A DNA stretch of 60,933 nucleotides. It comes from an uncultured Bacilli bacterium (lineage in GTDB: Bacteria; Bacillota_I; Bacilli_A; RF39; UBA660). The position numbers and the translations under genes are program-made. Positions 38 to 41,526 of this stretch are shown one piece after another; position 1 is the first letter of the stretch, and each line of letters starts with the position of its first letter. The stretch spans positions 1 through 60,933 of the forward strand of contig CANRCX010000007.1 in NCBI GenBank assembly GCA_947629235.1, in the 5' to 3' direction. Under the pieces are notes generated by a model. That model was not told the origin of the DNA. It saw only the letters and a program-made list of their open reading frames with translations, and made no database searches.

Positions 38-1891
38 TTATTCTATAGCTATTTTAAAAGCAGTTGTTGGTGTCTTTCCATCACCACCTGTGATTATAAC
101 ATTTTCATTTAATGTAATAGATGGTTTTGCGGCAAAATCTTGGTCATATGTTTCTTGAAATATACCTTTGGCATCTGGCTCAAATGCTCCAACCATTGGC
201 CAACTACCATCACCATACGGAGTCATTGTAGCTGTCAAATAATCATGGGTATCTTTTCCACCTAATGGATAATCAAACAATTCACCAACAATTGGAAGTC
301 CAACATAACCTTTCCAAGTTTTAGCTGTTTTTTCACAATTTTTTGTTGTTGCAGTAGTATTTTTATCTTTACATATAGTATTTTTATAACTACCAATAAC
401 ACTTCCATCAGTAGCTTTATTTTGAGCATTATCTACATAATAAGTATCTTCAACTAAATATTTTTTTAAATCTTCTGTAAGCCATGAACCATTTAAATAT
501 GCTCCCCAATATTGTTCTTTTTTTGATTTGACTATATCCCCATAATTAGGCATACCACTCATAGCACCAAACTTCTTTACAAGAACTTTACCAGTTTCAT
601 CTGTTATATAATTAACACTTGATAATTTAGTTACAAGTTTTCCATCTTCATTATGAGTATTTACTATACGGTATAACATACCATTAACCTCAACATATTC
701 TCCTGAAACTCTAGTATTAATTTTATCTCCAGACTTAGCAGCTGATTTATCATCTAGTAAAACAAATGGATCATTTTTTGTACCTTTTCCACTATACCTG
801 ACATCTGCTTTTAATACTACTACTGGACGAATTCCAAATGATGAATTAGGTACAACCACTCCTGTTATACTATATTTATCAATTGCATAAACATCAGTAT
901 TACTTAAATAATGCGAAGATAACCACCAAGAATGTCCAACATTTAAAAAGCTATTTTCATTATAACCATTATTAATTTTAGTAAATTCGTAAGTATTTAA
1001 TAATCCTACTGTAGCTTTATCAGTATCAGTCACAGCTGGTTTCTTATAGCACCAGGAATAAGAAGGAGATATATCCCAAGTAGCATTTGTTACTAATATA
1101 TTTTGATGATTATATAAAGTGTCCAAAAAGTCTTCATTTAACCATTGCTTCATAAATGAATCTTTAAAAGAAGCTGTCATACCAAAATTAATAGCAGATA
1201 AAATATCTTCAGAAATCATTTTTACTGTTCCATCTTTTAATATTTCTATTATTCTCCACATTTTTCCAGAATACCATACATAATTAAAATTCAAACATTC
1301 ATTAGTTCCTGATAAATAGTTGATCATAGGTGGAGTAGCCGCACCAGCATCATTACATTTAGTATCAGTGGTGTATAATGGACTTTTTTTGCCATTAAGA
1401 GAACAGGTTTTATTTTTAGCATTTTCCATCACATACTCACCTAATGTTTTTTTATTACCTACTAATTCATTTCCATTACAATCTAATATTTGTGATTGAG
1501 CATCACTAACTTTATATTTATTTCCTATATCATCTTTTTTTATTCCAGATGCAGATGATGCTATTAACTCAAATTCATCATCTCTTGCTGATACTTCTAT
1601 TATTGCACCATTGCTTGATAATTCTATTTTATATATTATATTATTTCTTCCTGTTGTACTTAATTTATTTGTACTACTATCAAAGCATAGATTAGCTACT
1701 TGTGTATTTATAGAATCTGATAAATACTTATTTTCTGCACTCCTTACTAAATTTTGTACTTCTGTTGCAAAAGAATTTTGTTTTGCAGTTCTATACATTT
1801 TTAAAATATTTGGCATTGCTATTATCACCAATATTGCAAGTATTGCTATTACTGCAAGTAATTCTATTAATGTAAATCCACGTTTTTTCAT
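38..1891 (-). CDS. Prepilin-like protein (class III/T4P-type N-terminus) with two tandem DUF6273-like C-terminal domains
   Basis: N-terminus MKKRGFTLIELLAVIAILAILVIIAMPNILKM; C-terminal 'YSGKMWRIIEI..DG.VKMI' and 'GIRPVVVLKADV' blocks. Confidence 0.8.
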   Translation of the reverse strand: MKKRGFTLIELLAVIAILAILVIIAMPNILKMYRTAKQNSFATEVQNLVRSAENKYLSDSINTQVANLCFDSSTNKLSTTGRNNIIYKIELSSNGAIIEVSARDDEFELIASSASGIKKDDIGNKYKVSDAQSQILDCNGNELVGNKKTLGEYVMENAKNKTCSLNGKKSPLYTTDTKCNDAGAATPPMINYLSGTNECLNFNYVWYSGKMWRIIEILKDGTVKMISEDILSAINFGMTASFKDSFMKQWLNEDFLDTLYNHQNILVTNATWDISPSYSWCYKKPAVTDTDKATVGLLNTYEFTKINNGYNENSFLNVGHSWWLSSHYLSNTDVYAIDKYSITGVVVPNSSFGIRPVVVLKADVRYSGKGTKNDPFVLLDDKSAAKSGDKINTRVSGEYVEVNGMLYRIVNTHNEDGKLVTKLSSVNYITDETGKVLVKKFGAMSGMPNYGDIVKSKKEQYWGAYLNGSWLTEDLKKYLVEDTYYVDNAQNKATDGSVIGSYKNTICKDKNTTATTKNCEKTAKTWKGYVGLPIVGELFDYPLGGKDTHDYLTATMTPYGDGSWPMVGAFEPDAKGIFQETYDQDFAAKPSITLNENVIITGGDGKTPTTAFKIAIE

Positions 1892-1960
1892 TTTTAACTT
1901 CTCCTTTTTATTATTACTCTAGTAATATTTTAACATTTCATATCATATATTACAATATTT

Positions 1961-4135
1961 TTATTCATTTAATAATCCTATTTTAAAAGCAGTTTCTGGT
2001 GTCCTTCCATCACCACCTGTGATTATAACATCTTCTTTTAAAGTAATAGTTGGTTTTACGGCAAAATCCTTATTATATGTTTCTTGAAATATACCTTGGG
2101 TTTCTGGCTCAAATGCTCCAATCATTGGCCAGCTACCATCACCATACGGAGTCATTGTAGCTGTCAAATAATCATGTATATCATTTCCCCCTAATGGATA
2201 AGCAAATAATTCACCAACAATTGGAAGTCCAACATACCCTTTCCATGTTTTTTCTGTTTTTTCACAATTTTCTGTTGTTTCAGTAGTATTTTTATTTTTA
2301 CATATAGTATTTTTATAACTACCAATATTACTATCATTAGGTGCTTTTTGAACATTATCTACATAATAAGTATCTTTAACTAAATATTTTTTTAAATCAT
2401 CTGTAAGCCATGAACCATTTAAATATGCTCCCCAATATTTTTCATCTCGTGAATTAACAACATCTTTATAACTATGCATACTATCCATATCACCAAATTT
2501 CTTTATAATAACATTACCATCAGAATCTGTTACATAATTAGCACTTTTTAATTTAGTTACAAGTTTTCCATCTTCATTATGAGTATTTACTATACGATAT
2601 AACATATCATTAATTTCAACAAGTTCTCCTGGAGTTCTTGTATTTATTTTATCTCCAGGTTCAGGAAGTTCAATATCATCTAATAAAACAAATGGATCAT
2701 TTTTTGTTCCTGCACCTTTAAATTTTACATCGGCTCTTAAAACTACCATAGGTCGAACTCCAAAAGCATTATTTGGCACTTCCCATCCTGTCAATATTCC
2801 ATCTGGATTCATTCCAGCAACAGCTGTATAAGGAGGAGCCAAATTAATAGGTGATGAGAACCACCAGCTATGTCCAAGATTTAAAAAACTTTTGTTACCA
2901 TATGCAGAAGTCTTGTTAAATTCGTAAGAACTTAATAAACCAACGGTGGCTTTTGTTGTAGAAGGCGGAGCAATATAACACCAACTATACCAACCTGATA
3001 TCTCCCACTCAGCATCGGTTACTAATATTTTTTTATAATTATATAAAGTATCTCGAAAATCTTCATTTAACCATTGTTTTATATATGAATTTTCAAAGTC
3101 TCCAGTTTCACCAAAATTTATAGCAGATAAAATATTTTCAGTAATCATTTTCACCGATCCATCATTTAATATTTCTGTTATTCTCCACATATAACCCGAA
3201 TACCAAACATAATTAAAATTAAGACAATCATTAGTTCCTATCAAATATTTATGATAAGGCGGTGGATCATTAAATCCACTATCACCATTACAAAAATTAT
3301 CAGTTTGTATTATAGTGGAATTTTGATCACCCCAATGACATGTTTTATCTTTTCCAAGTTCTAATACATATTCACCTAATGTTTTATATCTAACAACTAC
3401 ATCACCTGATATATTATTTACTGTTATAGTATTACCATTATTTTTATAAGTTGTTTTTTCTCCATCAACATATACATTTACATATCGTAATTCTACTTGA
3501 CTATCAAAATTTATTACTAAATCATTACCCTCTAAAACTTCTTTTGGGTAACTATCTGTATCAACATTAAAACCATAATATTTTACACTATGAAATGGTC
3601 TAAAATCAAAGGTTAATAATACATTATATTCAATATTTTCTTTATTAAATTTGTTATCTTTATACTTAACTTCTACATCTATATATTTCTTTATTCCTAA
3701 ACTGCATTTACTATCTACACATATTTTTTCTTTTAATTTATAATCACTTGTTATTACTGCTTCTAAATTTTCATTATTAGTAGTAATTTTTAATATTCCC
3801 ATTTCTACATTACCTATATTAGTTATTTCTACTCTATATGTAACACTTGAATTTTCATTTGGTAAAGTTATAGTTGAATATATATTTTTTACATTATAGT
3901 CTTCTCCTTTAGATAATGCCATTCCACTATTACCTGTTAGTTGTACCCCAGTTACTCTTATATTTTTTTCTACTCTTACTTCTGCTAATATATCTCCTAT
4001 ATTCAAATTTTGACTATATGAAGAATAACCAATTGAAATCATCATAATCATTACAACTATGATAGAACTTACAATAGCTATTTTTTTATCATTATTCCTT
4101 TTCTTTCTTTTTTTCATTTTTTCTCCATATAACAA
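1961..4135 (-). CDS. Membrane-anchored/secreted protein sharing its ~480-aa C-terminal block with the neighbouring prepilin-like protein
   Basis: Hydrophobic N-terminal segment KIAIVSSIIVVMIMMISIGYSSYS; from 'LGEYV' onward closely similar to ORF 38..1891. Confidence 0.75.
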   Translation of the reverse strand: MLYGEKMKKRKKRNNDKKIAIVSSIIVVMIMMISIGYSSYSQNLNIGDILAEVRVEKNIRVTGVQLTGNSGMALSKGEDYNVKNIYSTITLPNENSSVTYRVEITNIGNVEMGILKITTNNENLEAVITSDYKLKEKICVDSKCSLGIKKYIDVEVKYKDNKFNKENIEYNVLLTFDFRPFHSVKYYGFNVDTDSYPKEVLEGNDLVINFDSQVELRYVNVYVDGEKTTYKNNGNTITVNNISGDVVVRYKTLGEYVLELGKDKTCHWGDQNSTIIQTDNFCNGDSGFNDPPPYHKYLIGTNDCLNFNYVWYSGYMWRITEILNDGSVKMITENILSAINFGETGDFENSYIKQWLNEDFRDTLYNYKKILVTDAEWEISGWYSWCYIAPPSTTKATVGLLSSYEFNKTSAYGNKSFLNLGHSWWFSSPINLAPPYTAVAGMNPDGILTGWEVPNNAFGVRPMVVLRADVKFKGAGTKNDPFVLLDDIELPEPGDKINTRTPGELVEINDMLYRIVNTHNEDGKLVTKLKSANYVTDSDGNVIIKKFGDMDSMHSYKDVVNSRDEKYWGAYLNGSWLTDDLKKYLVKDTYYVDNVQKAPNDSNIGSYKNTICKNKNTTETTENCEKTEKTWKGYVGLPIVGELFAYPLGGNDIHDYLTATMTPYGDGSWPMIGAFEPETQGIFQETYNKDFAVKPTITLKEDVIITGGDGRTPETAFKIGLLNE

Positions 4136-36864: not shown

Positions 36865-37497
36865 TTATTCTAATTCATTTACTTTTAATGTATATAAATT
36901 TTCAGGATCCATTGGATTTTCTTTATAATAAACTTCAAAATGTAATAGTGATTTATTTTCTGTATCTAATTTAGATGAAGTAGAACTTGCAATTATTTCA
37001 CCTTGTGATACTTTATAGCCTGTAGCTACTAAAACATCTGTTACATTACTATAAACTGTTTTTAAATTATCATTATGTTTTATAGTTATAACTTTTCCAT
37101 ATACTTCATTTTCTTCAACTGATATAATTTCACCATCTAATACTGATAAAACATCAAAATCTTCATCATTTACATAATCTACTCCTTTATTTTGCATATA
37201 TGTATTTTCAAAATAAATAAGTGATCCTTCTTGTTTTTCTTTATCTGTTTCAAAATCATAAAAATATTTTCCTACTTTTACTTTATCATCAATATATGGT
37301 CTTATAATAGTATCACTTTTTGTACTAACAACTGGACTTAAATCACTTTGAAAAAAATCATCAAGTGTATAATTATATTTTGGTTCTTCAGTTAAATAAT
37401 TTTTTACACCTGTCACTACTAACATTACACTTACAACCATTACTGCTATTACACCAATATAAATTGTTGGCATTAAATATTTTGTATACTTTTCCAT
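36865..37497 (-). CDS. M23/LytM-domain membrane protein, SpoIIQ-like
   Basis: N-terminal TM; NKGVDYVN...LDGEIISVEENEVYGKVITIKHNDNLKTVYSNV...LLHFEVYYKENPMDPENLY; adjacent SpoIID-like gene. Confidence 0.75.
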   Translation of the reverse strand: MEKYTKYLMPTIYIGVIAVMVVSVMLVVTGVKNYLTEEPKYNYTLDDFFQSDLSPVVSTKSDTIIRPYIDDKVKVGKYFYDFETDKEKQEGSLIYFENTYMQNKGVDYVNDEDFDVLSVLDGEIISVEENEVYGKVITIKHNDNLKTVYSNVTDVLVATGYKVSQGEIIASSTSSKLDTENKSLLHFEVYYKENPMDPENLYTLKVNELE

Positions 37498-37539
37498 AAA
37501 TTCACTCTCCTAGTTATAGAGTGAACATTTTTTTAATTA

Positions 37540-38487
37540 TTATTCATTTATTTTTACTCCTGTATAATAATATTTTAGTATTTCATCATATGAATAACCT
37601 TTTTTAGCCATAGCATTAGCTCCATATTGGCTCATACCAACTCCATGACCATATCCCTTTGTATCAATATAAACTTTATTATCTTTTCTAGTTATTTCAA
37701 CATCTGTACTTCTGAGTCCTAAAAGTGTTCTAAAATTAGTACCTTTAAAAGTTTTTCCATTAACTATAACACTACTTGCTCTTCCTGTTGAACTTTTATT
37801 CACTTTTATACTATCTACTTTATCTGCATTAATACCTAATTTTTTTAAGAAATCTTTTTCTGTAAAACTAACTGTTTTTTCTTTATAATCATATTCACTA
37901 TCCCAACTTGAATCTACACTTTTTAAATAATCTAATTTTTGACTAAATACATTTTCACAATTTTCTGTATATCCATTTGAAATAGAAAAATAAAATGAAA
38001 TAATTACTTTATCTTTATAAGTCATAAATTGATTTTTAGTATCATTTACAGCTTCTTTTATTTTTTCATAATTTTTATCAAAACTACTTCCCCAATTCTT
38101 TTTCATTTGATCAACTGAAATATAACACTGATCTTTAGTTGTTGTTGATAACTTATAGTTTTTATTTGTATTTATTTTATATAATGCAAATGTTCTTGAT
38201 GCTACTGCCATTGCTTTTAACGCTTCAATATCAAAAGATGCTGGCATTTCACAAGCAACTACACCAACTACATAATCTTCTAAATCCATATTTATAGTTT
38301 CATCATCATAAATAATATAAACACTTTGTGTTTTATCTTCTTCTACTATAATTTTATCTTCTTGTTTTTGATTAGTGACTTCTTTTGATGATTCTACTTC
38401 TATTTTATTTTCTTTATTATATTTATGTTGATAACTTGTTATTAATATTATAAAGACAATAAAAAATACTATGATTTTTCTTTTCAT
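37540..38487 (-). CDS. spoIID: SpoIID/LytB domain protein
   Basis: VVACEMPASFDIEALKAMAVASRTFALYKI, GYGHGVGMSQYGANAMAKKGYSYDEILKYYYTGV. Confidence 0.9.
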   Translation of the reverse strand: MKRKIIVFFIVFIILITSYQHKYNKENKIEVESSKEVTNQKQEDKIIVEEDKTQSVYIIYDDETINMDLEDYVVGVVACEMPASFDIEALKAMAVASRTFALYKINTNKNYKLSTTTKDQCYISVDQMKKNWGSSFDKNYEKIKEAVNDTKNQFMTYKDKVIISFYFSISNGYTENCENVFSQKLDYLKSVDSSWDSEYDYKEKTVSFTEKDFLKKLGINADKVDSIKVNKSSTGRASSVIVNGKTFKGTNFRTLLGLRSTDVEITRKDNKVYIDTKGYGHGVGMSQYGANAMAKKGYSYDEILKYYYTGVKINE

Positions 38488-38924: not shown

Positions 38925-39353
38925 CTACTTTAAATTTCTAATTTTATCTAATCTTCTTTTATGTCTTTCTTCATCTGATGGTTTAGTATTTATAAAATTA
39001 TCTAAAATTTCTTCTAAATTTTCTGTATATTCTGCTAGTGTCATAACATTTGCTTGATTATGACTTCTAGATAAGAATGCTTCTCTTGGAGTATTAACTT
39101 TAGCTGCTATAATATTATGTATTTTATTAGCTGCTATACTCATACCTATTCCAGTACCACATATTAATATTCCAGCATCTACTTTTTTATTATTAATACC
39201 ATTACATAATGAAACGGCATAATCTACATAATCTACATTATTTTCTTCATCACAACCATAGTTTTTATATTCAATATTATGTTTTGTTAAATATTCAATT
39301 ATTCTTTTCTTTAATTCTATTCCATGATGATCATTTGCTATTCCTATTTTCAT
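38925..39353 (-). CDS. rpiB: Ribose-5-phosphate isomerase B
   Basis: IANDHHGIELKK, ILICGTGIGMSIAANK, SRSHNQANVM. Confidence 0.95.
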   Translation of the reverse strand: MKIGIANDHHGIELKKRIIEYLTKHNIEYKNYGCDEENNVDYVDYAVSLCNGINNKKVDAGILICGTGIGMSIAANKIHNIIAAKVNTPREAFLSRSHNQANVMTLAEYTENLEEILDNFINTKPSDEERHKRRLDKIRNLK

Positions 39354-40078
39354 TTTTCACTTTCCTTTTTTGTTTTTCTTTTTGATGATTTTTCTTCGTA
39401 TTTAGCTTCTCTTACTTTATTAGTTACTTTCTTTTTTGATGTTTTAGGCTTTTCTTCTGACTCTTCTGTTTCTTCTTTATAATTAGCATCTACTACTAAA
39501 GTATGAGCAAGTAAATCATGAAGACCTACACCATCTTCTCTAAATAAAATCATACCTATTGATGTAAATATTAATCCCATATCTATAAAACCAATTACTG
39601 AGTTTACAGTTAAAAAACTTGGCTTAGATAATGCTAATAATGTAATTATTGTAGCAGAAGATGTAAGTAAACTATTTATTATTCCACTTCTAATAATAAA
39701 TTGATATATATTTAATTTTTCATTATTAGTAGAAACAATTTTTATATTTAATAAAGCTTTTCCAATTGTTTTACCACCGTTATAGAATTGAAATATACAG
39801 AAATATAAAAATGTTACAATTAAACTTATTATTGAAACATATAATCCATTATGTGCTATATCATAAATTAAATCATTATATTCTTCCCCCATTACCATTT
39901 CTGGATTATTACTATCTGAAAATTTAAGAACATATTCTTGATATTCTTTATAAGTATTTTCATATTCTTCTTTATATGGATTAATTAAATCAATATTAGA
40001 GAATATTGATACTATTGCTACAATAAGTATACTATCAACTAAATATGCTAATATTCTTCTAAAAACTGGTTTTTTCAT
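39350..40078 (-). CDS. RDD family membrane protein
   Basis: RRILAYLVDSILI, GGKTIGKALLNIKIVS, C-terminal charged tail. Confidence 0.85.
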   Translation of the reverse strand: MKKPVFRRILAYLVDSILIVAIVSIFSNIDLINPYKEEYENTYKEYQEYVLKFSDSNNPEMVMGEEYNDLIYDIAHNGLYVSIISLIVTFLYFCIFQFYNGGKTIGKALLNIKIVSTNNEKLNIYQFIIRSGIINSLLTSSATIITLLALSKPSFLTVNSVIGFIDMGLIFTSIGMILFREDGVGLHDLLAHTLVVDANYKEETEESEEKPKTSKKKVTNKVREAKYEEKSSKRKTKKESEK

Positions 40079-41526
40079 TATTTTTTATCCTCCTTTGGCT
40101 TTTTATATAAAAATGAGAATAAACTAGATTTTCTTTTTATTAAACCTGTTATTTTATAATCATTATTTATATTCTGATATATTGAATTAGCTAAATCATA
40201 TAATGAACCTTCTGAAACAGTAAATTGTGCTAAATTTATTACTTCATCATCAATAACTAATGGTACTTTTCCAGAAAAATTAACCTTACATAGTTCTTGT
40301 TTTTGATTATATAAATCAACTTGTAGTCCATATAAAGATGTTATGAACATTGAATAATGATTTTCTCTTATATAGTTATCAAGTACTCCAATTACAGCAT
40401 CTATTTTAGAAAGTCTATCTTTTATTTCTTCTATTGTTTTACATGAACTAATTTCATAATTTATTATAATCAATTCATTATTTAAAGATTTAACTATTTC
40501 TAACATTTTATTAGGATCATAAATAAATCCATCATCTGTAGGTAAATATTTTAAATCTTCATCAATTACATTTCTAAGACCCGTTAAATAATAATTAATA
40601 TTTGGACAATTATCTTTTTTATCCATTACTATACATTTCGCATTTATACTTTTTATAGAATTTAACATATAATTTGAAGATACTGCATAATTATACATAA
40701 ATGGTACTTGTATTTTATCACATTTTATAGGAAATAATGAATAGAACTTAATAGTATCTAAATTTAGAGTTCTATATTTTTGAATATATAATTCTTGAAT
40801 AAATGAATTAAGATTAATACTAGCATAATTAAATATTATTACTTGATCATTTTCTTCAAATTTATAATCAAGATTTACTGAAAATGTTCTAGTATCAAAT
40901 GGTTTTGTTTTAGTTTGAGATAATACTTGAACTTTTTTATCTAAGTCTTTCCATTTTTCACCAGCTTCAGTTAGCATACATTTTACATATTCTTTCATAC
41001 CAGTCATATTTGCAATATTATTTTCTCCAGCTATTACACCTAATTTTACATTAGCTCCTAATTCATAACTTAATATTTGGAAACCTCTATCTATATCTTT
41101 ATAATCGTTAAGTGATTTTTGACAAAGAATAATATGTATAAATATTTTAGCTTGTGTTTGTGATTGAATAGTTCTTAAATATGCTACTAAATGATCTACA
41201 GTACTAGCTGAATCCCAATAACAAATAATATGTAATCTTGAATTTAAATTATTAACTGTTGTAGTTATATTAGTTAAAAGATCATTAGTTAATGTTTCAT
41301 TATTTATATTATTTTCTATCACACTATATGTTAATGGTTCATTTATACCCATACTGAAATTTCTATATGCACTAATATAATCTAAGTAATTATTTGGAAT
41401 AGATACAAATACTCTTTCTTTAGTAAGTCTATCCATATTAGGCATTAACTCACCAGAATAAATATTATATGAATCAGCTTTTTCAACACCAAAACCATTT
41501 ATTAGTAGTAATATATTTCTCTTCAT
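40078..41526 (-). CDS. Phosphoglycerate mutase (iPGM)/alkaline phosphatase superfamily-like protein, catalytic residues not conserved
   Basis: ILLLINGFGVEKADSYNIYSGELMPNMDRL; LHIICYWDSASTVDHLVAYL; KIFIHIILCQKSLNDYKDIDRGFQIL; QVIIFNYASINLNSFIQEL. Confidence 0.65.
   Translation of the reverse strand: MKRNILLLINGFGVEKADSYNIYSGELMPNMDRLTKERVFVSIPNNYLDYISAYRNFSMGINEPLTYSVIENNINNETLTNDLLTNITTTVNNLNSRLHIICYWDSASTVDHLVAYLRTIQSQTQAKIFIHIILCQKSLNDYKDIDRGFQILSYELGANVKLGVIAGENNIANMTGMKEYVKCMLTEAGEKWKDLDKKVQVLSQTKTKPFDTRTFSVNLDYKFEENDQVIIFNYASINLNSFIQELYIQKYRTLNLDTIKFYSLFPIKCDKIQVPFMYNYAVSSNYMLNSIKSINAKCIVMDKKDNCPNINYYLTGLRNVIDEDLKYLPTDDGFIYDPNKMLEIVKSLNNELIIINYEISSCKTIEEIKDRLSKIDAVIGVLDNYIRENHYSMFITSLYGLQVDLYNQKQELCKVNFSGKVPLVIDDEVINLAQFTVSEGSLYDLANSIYQNINNDYKITGLIKRKSSLFSFLYKKPKEDKK

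What the first reader, a model, noticed from the sequence alone, without database searches (positions are those of the whole stretch)
40078..41526. iPGM-like pseudoenzyme with systematic loss of catalytic and metal-binding residues
The layout follows cofactor-independent phosphoglycerate mutase, but key motifs are replaced: LDGWG to LINGFG (metal Asp to Asn); the GNSEVGH Ser region is absent (DYISAYRNFSMGINE); SDGGVHSH to YWDSASTVDH; DGRDTPP to CQKSLNDYK; FRPDRAR to YASINLNS; TADHGNAE to TSLYGLQVD; HTTNPVPF to NFSGKVPLV. Loss at nearly every catalytic motif with the frame intact suggests a repurposed scaffold or regulator, in an apparent operon with rpiB and an RDD protein.
Basis: partly seen in the sequence, partly recalled or inferred. 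Interest (0 to 1): 0.6.

Follow-up and report, generated by a model that had tools for sequence, protein, structure and literature searches.

The report
Membrane-tethered dead phosphoglycerate mutase family
The gene encodes a protein descended from the glycolytic enzyme phosphoglycerate mutase that has lost every catalytic residue but is kept under selection in about 18 genera of one family of uncultured bacteria, where its tail end has become a membrane anchor or anchor-like basic tail, so an enzyme fold seems to have been reused for a non-catalytic job.

Summary
Confirmed and extended. The 482-aa minus-strand ORF (41526..40078) descends over its full length from cofactor-independent phosphoglycerate mutase (iPGM): family profile vs solved iPGM 7tl8, E=6e-40; vs iPGMs of the same bacterial family, E=3e-44 over 470 columns. 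It keeps 0 of 15 catalytic/metal/substrate positions. 42 distinct relatives keep 0-1 of 15; genuine iPGMs of the same bacteria mostly keep 13-15. It is a clade (support 100/100) found in ~18 genera of one GTDB family (30 of 288 genomes of the order) and not in the other families sampled in class and phylum. Close relatives show dN/dS 0.08-0.14, so it is no decaying pseudogene. Former metal positions carry new conserved residues (D12>N, S62>Y/F, D444>L, H445>Y/F). New here: nine early-branching members end in a transmembrane helix, and 32 of 33 others end in a conserved basic-hydrophobic tail that true iPGMs lack. The genome has a separate gpmI, but a relative whose only detected mutase is the unrelated dPGM still keeps the pseudoenzyme, so it is probably not just a gpmI regulator. 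Most likely: a membrane-attached, non-catalytic scaffold or adaptor, partner unknown (mechanism about 50%). Fold not modelled: the shallow AlphaFold run failed.

The parts
40078..41526 (-). pseudo-iPGM gene, 482 aa
   Evidence: orthologues L028-L031 at 62-88% identity
41488..41505 (-). LINGFG (residues 8-13), former LDGxG metal motif; Asp12 is Asn10 (Asn in 41 of 42 relatives)
41365..41382 (-). residues 49-54 (DYISAY), former GNSEVGH nucleophile loop; Ser62 aligns with Tyr50 and ten residues upstream are deleted
40951..40962 (-). GEKW (residues 189-192); Glu190 and Trp192 invariant in the pseudoenzyme family, not an iPGM motif
40327..40344 (-). ITSLYG (residues 395-400) in place of TADHGN; Asp444 to Leu, His445 to Tyr
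40273..40281 (-). NFS (residues 416-418) in place of the His462 motif
40081..40158 (-). C-terminal basic-hydrophobic tail (residues 457-482, YKITGLIKRKSSLFSFLYKKPKEDKK), net charge +7 over the last 25; early-branching relatives have a transmembrane helix at this end
39350..40078 (-). RDD-family membrane protein, start overlaps the pseudo-iPGM stop by 1 base; probable co-translated neighbour, conserved in the genus and in G009

Best explanation
The gene is one member of a dedicated family of catalytically dead iPGM descendants. SHOWN: common ancestry with iPGM over the full length; loss of both metal sites, the nucleophilic serine and the substrate arginines throughout the family; purifying selection; a single clade restricted, in the genomes sampled, to one bacterial family; a hydrophobic C-terminal helix in the early-branching members and a conserved basic-hydrophobic tail in the rest. 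INFERRED: the protein is cytoplasmic (no signal peptide noticed; basic residues lie before the helix, so the iPGM part should face the cytoplasm), is held at the membrane by its C-terminal end, and works by binding, as a scaffold or adaptor for a membrane-associated process, using surfaces rebuilt around the old active site (N10, Y50, L398, Y399, N416) and the new GEKW motif. A likely history (inferred) is duplication of the lineage's own gpmI, early catalytic loss with gain of a tail anchor, then shortening of the loop and of the tail in the branch to which the window belongs. The partner is unknown.
For: 0-1 of 15 catalytic positions kept in 42 distinct sequences; window 0. Profile bits clearly bimodal, 374 or more for pseudo copies against 209 or less for genuine gpmI. 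One clade, 100/100. dN/dS 0.12-0.13 for window vs L028/L029, like the neighbouring M23 and SpoIID genes, and 0.08-0.09 for other close pairs. All 9 long forms have a hydrophobic C-terminal segment (best 19-residue mean 1.9-3.5, 1-8 residues from the end, net +1 to +6 just before it); 32 of 33 short forms carry the tail motif against 2 of 25 family gpmI and 0 of 15 outgroup gpmI; mean tail charge +4.5 against -2.0 and -1.1. Fusions of true gpmI to a transmembrane segment plus DUF6273-like domain in two other genera of the family show that membrane attachment of iPGM occurs here. gpmI lies 3-4 genes upstream of the pseudo copy in L128/L129, a possible trace of tandem duplication.
Against: No structure model, so the rebuilt surface is not seen in 3D. 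No single neighbour is shared by all lineages, so no partner is indicated. Membrane binding of the short tail is inferred from sequence only and could instead be a protein- or nucleic-acid-binding tail. The tail motif was written after looking at the tails, so the 32/33 count is descriptive. The placement of L019 among family gpmI rests on moderate support and a very long branch.
Confidence: 0.5

Rival explanations
1. Ligand sensor: the degenerate cleft between the two iPGM domains binds a small molecule without turning it over and signals at the membrane.
For: Positions around the old site carry new conserved residues (N10, Y399, L398); P-II-like and DUF1538 genes lie downstream in g103 and g92.
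Against: All phosphoglycerate-binding arginines are lost, so the old ligand is unlikely; few charged residues are conserved in the family (H99, H131, E190, D227, D376 and a few Lys/Glu); no evidence of a pocket without a structure.
Confidence: 0.2
2. Regulator or dominant partner of the cell's own iPGM.
For: 18 of 22 pseudo-bearing genomes also have a gpmI above the curated cut-off; iPGM regulation by a binding protein is known in cyanobacteria (PirC, PMC12077085).
Against: G092 (94% complete) has a true dPGM above cut-off and no detectable gpmI, yet keeps the pseudoenzyme; G013, G019 and G042 also lack a detectable gpmI. iPGM is generally monomeric (prior knowledge), so a dimer-poisoning role is unlikely.
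Confidence: 0.12
3. A new enzyme using a different catalytic set on the same fold.
For: Strong conservation of H131, E190, W192, D227, D376, S397, Y399.
Against: No conserved set resembling a metal site; D227 and D376 align with acidic positions also conserved in true iPGM, suggesting structural roles.
Confidence: 0.1
4. Accessory part of a type VII secretion system.
For: In L128/L129 the pseudoenzyme is the first gene of a same-strand run that includes small EsaB/WXG100-sized proteins, DUF4176 and an EssC-like FtsK/FHA ATPase; an EssC gene lies near it in G191.
Against: EssC above cut-off in 15 of 23 pseudo-bearing genomes against 72 of 170 others, only a weak excess; G110, G046, G180, G073, G083, G017 and G190 have no EssC over cut-off. 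Pfam did not recognise the small proteins.
Confidence: 0.05
5. Decaying pseudogene or strongly diverged but active iPGM.
For: Low identity to true iPGM (15% in the profile alignment).
Against: Open frame in 42 distinct sequences, dN/dS far below 1, and loss of nucleophile and both metal sites in all of them.
Confidence: 0.02

Closest known systems
[quoted passage not shown] TIGR01307, PF06415+PF01676; structures 1ejj, 7tl8)
   Same: Same full-length two-domain architecture by profile alignment, similar length, conserved structural positions (G11, P29, D227, N233, G316, D376).
   Different: 0-1 of 15 catalytic residues, about ten residues deleted before the serine loop in the short forms, D403/H407 loop shortened, a new C-terminal anchor or tail, far below the TIGR01307 cut-off.
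Bacterial dedicated pseudoenzymes in general (for example the EssB/YukC pseudokinase with a transmembrane segment; prior knowledge)
   Same: An enzyme fold without its catalytic residues, attached to the membrane.
   Different: A different fold and lineage; no iPGM-derived family of this kind was found in the open-access papers searched.
Cyanobacterial iPGAM with extra loop and C-terminal extension regulated by PirC (PMC12077085)
   Same: A lineage-specific C-terminal extension on iPGM.
   Different: That enzyme is active and the extension tunes its activity; here the activity residues are gone.
gpmI-TM-DUF6273 fusion of genera g107/g138 in the same family (L200-L202)
   Same: iPGM part on the presumed cytoplasmic side of a C-terminal membrane helix.
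   Different: The L200 fusion scores as a full iPGM (686 bits) and continues into an outer domain; the pseudoenzyme ends at the helix.

Membership tests
iPGM (TIGR01307 equivalog) | Score above curated cut-off (330.65 bits) | tested here: not met
   34.2 bits for the window protein; L019, the closest relative to iPGM, 213.9
iPGM (TIGR01307 equivalog) | Homology over both phosphatase and transferase domains | tested here: met
   hhalign E=2.9e-44, 470 columns; profile vs 7tl8 residues 1-505, E=6.4e-40
iPGM (TIGR01307 equivalog) | Nucleophilic serine (Ser62) | tested here: not met
   0 of 42; mostly Tyr/Phe
iPGM (TIGR01307 equivalog) | Two Mn sites (D12, D403, H407, D444, H445, H462) | tested here: not met
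   retained in 1, 1, 0, 0, 0, 0 of 42
iPGM (TIGR01307 equivalog) | Substrate residues (H123, R153, D154, R185, R191, R261, R264, K336) | tested here: not met
   0-3 of 42 at each site, none in the window
iPGM (TIGR01307 equivalog) | Mutase activity | not testable with these tools
   needs protein
iPGM fold (alkaline phosphatase superfamily) | Predicted 3D fold superposes on iPGM | tested here: inconclusive
Tail-anchored membrane protein | Single hydrophobic helix at the C-terminal end, basic residues before it (window protein) | tested here: not met
   the window protein has only the basic-hydrophobic tail (maximum 19-residue hydropathy in the last 60 residues 0.53); the 9 long relatives do meet it
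Functional (selected) gene rather than pseudogene | dN/dS well below 1 among close relatives, open frames | tested here: met
   0.08-0.14 for the closest pairs

The most novel reading that the evidence does not exclude
A clade-specific family of tail-anchored pseudo-iPGMs that acts as a membrane scaffold in one family of small-genome uncultured Bacilli, within a lineage that repeatedly brings iPGM to the membrane (dead copies with their own tail, live copies by fusion to a TM-DUF6273 protein), implying an undescribed membrane role for the iPGM fold.
Probability: 0.35. Interest if true: 0.75.

Novelty: new variant of a known kind. Interest (0 to 1): 0.58.

Why it matters
Catalytically dead versions of a core glycolytic enzyme kept as a separate, selected family are rarely documented, and a 2010 survey reported iPGM paralogues of any kind as rare in bacteria (PMC2964296). 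Here the near-intermediate L019, the membrane-anchored forms and the derived short forms survive side by side, so the route from enzyme to non-enzyme can be reconstructed and tested. It also warns that annotation by weak iPGM similarity would misassign these genes as glycolytic.

Tried and rejected
AlphaFold of the window protein with its four permitted relatives: mean pLDDT 38, so no fold search was run. Anti-phage defence and phage origin: no PADLOC or PHROG match. Type VII secretion as general partner: weak co-occurrence only. A conserved operon partner: none across genera; multi-membrane-spanning +1 genes are more common than background (18 of 35 vs 23%) but this is driven by a few genera. 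dPGM in the window's own genome: none found. Papers on iPGM pseudoenzymes: none in the open-access library searched; this is not proof of absence elsewhere.

Full report
Observation. The ORF lies on the minus strand at 41526..40078 (482 aa) with a ribosome-binding-site-like AAGGAG just upstream. The next gene (RDD family) starts inside the stop codon (TAATG), followed by rpiB, a DUF5362/SHOCT membrane protein, SpoIID and an M23 peptidase; a P-type ATPase precedes it.

Ancestry. Alone, the protein scores 34 bits against TIGR01307 (E=9.4e-9; cut-off 331). A profile of 26 relatives (A1) finds only iPGMs in the PDB, best E=6.4e-40, and aligns with an 18-sequence profile of genuine iPGMs from the same bacterial family over 470 columns at E=2.9e-44, 15% identity. 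The structure prediction failed for lack of alignment depth, so the fold is assigned by profile.

Loss of catalysis. At the 15 positions that in G. stearothermophilus iPGM are D12, S62, H123, R153, D154, R185, R191, R261, R264, K336, D403, H407, D444, H445 and H462 (numbering from prior knowledge; columns invariant or nearly so in true gpmI), the window retains none. Forty-two distinct relatives retain 0 or 1. True gpmI of the family retain 13-15 (one exception, L079, keeps 7), and 15 outgroup gpmI retain all. The replacements are uniform (D12 to Asn in 41 of 42; H445 to Tyr/Phe in 42 of 42; D444 to Leu in 36), so the site was rebuilt rather than merely eroded. Family-specific invariant residues include S19, E190, W192, F215 and S397.

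Distribution and history. In the order-level sample 30 of 288 genomes carry the pseudo form; its profile scores (374 bits or more) are cleanly separated from true gpmI (209 or less). No member was found outside the window's family in class (395) and phylum (295) samples. Together about 18 genera carry it. The tree gives one clade at 100/100; L019 (214 bits to TIGR01307, still D12) branches nearest to gpmI, the other long forms next, the short forms including the window last. With outgroup gpmI added, L019 joins inside the family's gpmI rather than outside, on a very long branch and with moderate support. In L128 and L129 a gpmI sits 3-4 genes upstream of the pseudo copy, compatible with tandem duplication.

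Selection. dN/dS is 0.08-0.14 for the closest pairs, and for window vs L028/L029 (0.133, 0.120) similar to the neighbouring M23 and SpoIID genes.

C-terminal end. All nine distinct long forms (L019-L024, L100, L112, L113) end in a hydrophobic helix 1-8 residues from the C-terminus with basic residues before it. The 33 short forms lack it; 32 match a basic-hydrophobic motif in the last 26 residues, against 2 of 25 family gpmI and 0 of 15 outgroup gpmI; mean charge of the last 25 residues is +4.5 against -2.0 and -1.1. I infer membrane attachment for the long forms with good confidence and for the short forms with moderate confidence.

Relation to the glycolytic enzyme. The window's genome has a separate gpmI (L001), with two substrate-side substitutions (R153E, R191N), and no detected dPGM. 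Of 22 other pseudo-bearing genomes 18 have gpmI above cut-off. G092 has no detected gpmI but a dPGM above two curated cut-offs and keeps the pseudoenzyme. Function is therefore probably separable from iPGM.

Context elsewhere. No shared partner: RDD in the window's genus and in G009; DUF1538 plus P-II-like in g103/g92; a small multi-membrane-spanning protein in g58/g85; EssC-type secretion genes in g149. EssC co-occurrence is only weakly raised.

Side discovery. In genera g107 and g138 a gpmI is fused to a transmembrane segment and a DUF6273-like domain (943-945 aa). The free-standing relative of that part ('X') is followed by a phosphodiester-glycosidase-family (PF09992) gene in all 30 loci read. 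gpmI lies directly next to X in G121 and G142 by read sequence, and by hit coordinates also in G064, G075 and G112. X lies 1-4 genes downstream of the pseudoenzyme in the five g103 loci read. This supports, without proving, a membrane theme for iPGM in this family.

Verdict. A selected, lineage-specific pseudoenzyme family: near certain. Membrane-attached non-catalytic scaffold or adaptor: best explanation, about even odds. Naming the lineage is left open: contig titles say uncultured Bacilli, Tenericutes or Erysipelotrichaceae.

Noticed in passing
L001:859-2358 (own genome, C15): The only phosphoglycerate mutase found in the window's genome has substitutions at two substrate-binding positions (R153E, R191N); a congener (G191) carries a similar copy (L078, R191N) plus a more canonical one (L069).
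   Followed up: partly
L079 (G083, C13): A second, separate partly degenerate gpmI that keeps 7 of 15 catalytic residues, outside the pseudo clade, in a genome that also has a canonical gpmI and the pseudoenzyme.
   Followed up: partly
L200:130-2967, L201:94-2925, L202:353-3187: iPGM fused to a transmembrane segment and DUF6273-like domain (943-945 aa); L200 scores far above the TIGR01307 cut-off.
   Followed up: partly
L203-L232: The TM-DUF6273-like protein X (free-standing, or in L224 fused to gpmI) is followed by a PF09992 (NAGPA, phosphodiester glycosidase) gene in 30 of 30 loci; gpmI adjoins X in several genera.
   Followed up: partly
L128:8804-17634, L129:1009-10084: The pseudoenzyme heads a same-strand run with small EsaB/WXG100-sized genes, DUF4176 and EssC; the small proteins have no Pfam match.
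   Followed up: partly
G000 C20, C1, C22: Three EssC-type genes over the TIGR03928 cut-off in a 1.43 Mb genome.
   Followed up: no
window 38-4135: Two large proteins (617 and 724 aa), one with a pilin-like N-terminus, share the DUF6273-like region of protein X.
   Followed up: no
window 36865-38487: SpoIID and M23 peptidase genes side by side, reminiscent of the sporulation SpoIID/SpoIIQ pair, in a small genome; also next to the pseudoenzyme operon in congeners.
   Followed up: no
L193:1177-2467 (G092): The dPGM gene sits next to the EngB-type GTPase gene, near which gpmI and the pseudoenzyme lie in L128/L129; possible replacement of one mutase by the other at one site.
   Followed up: no
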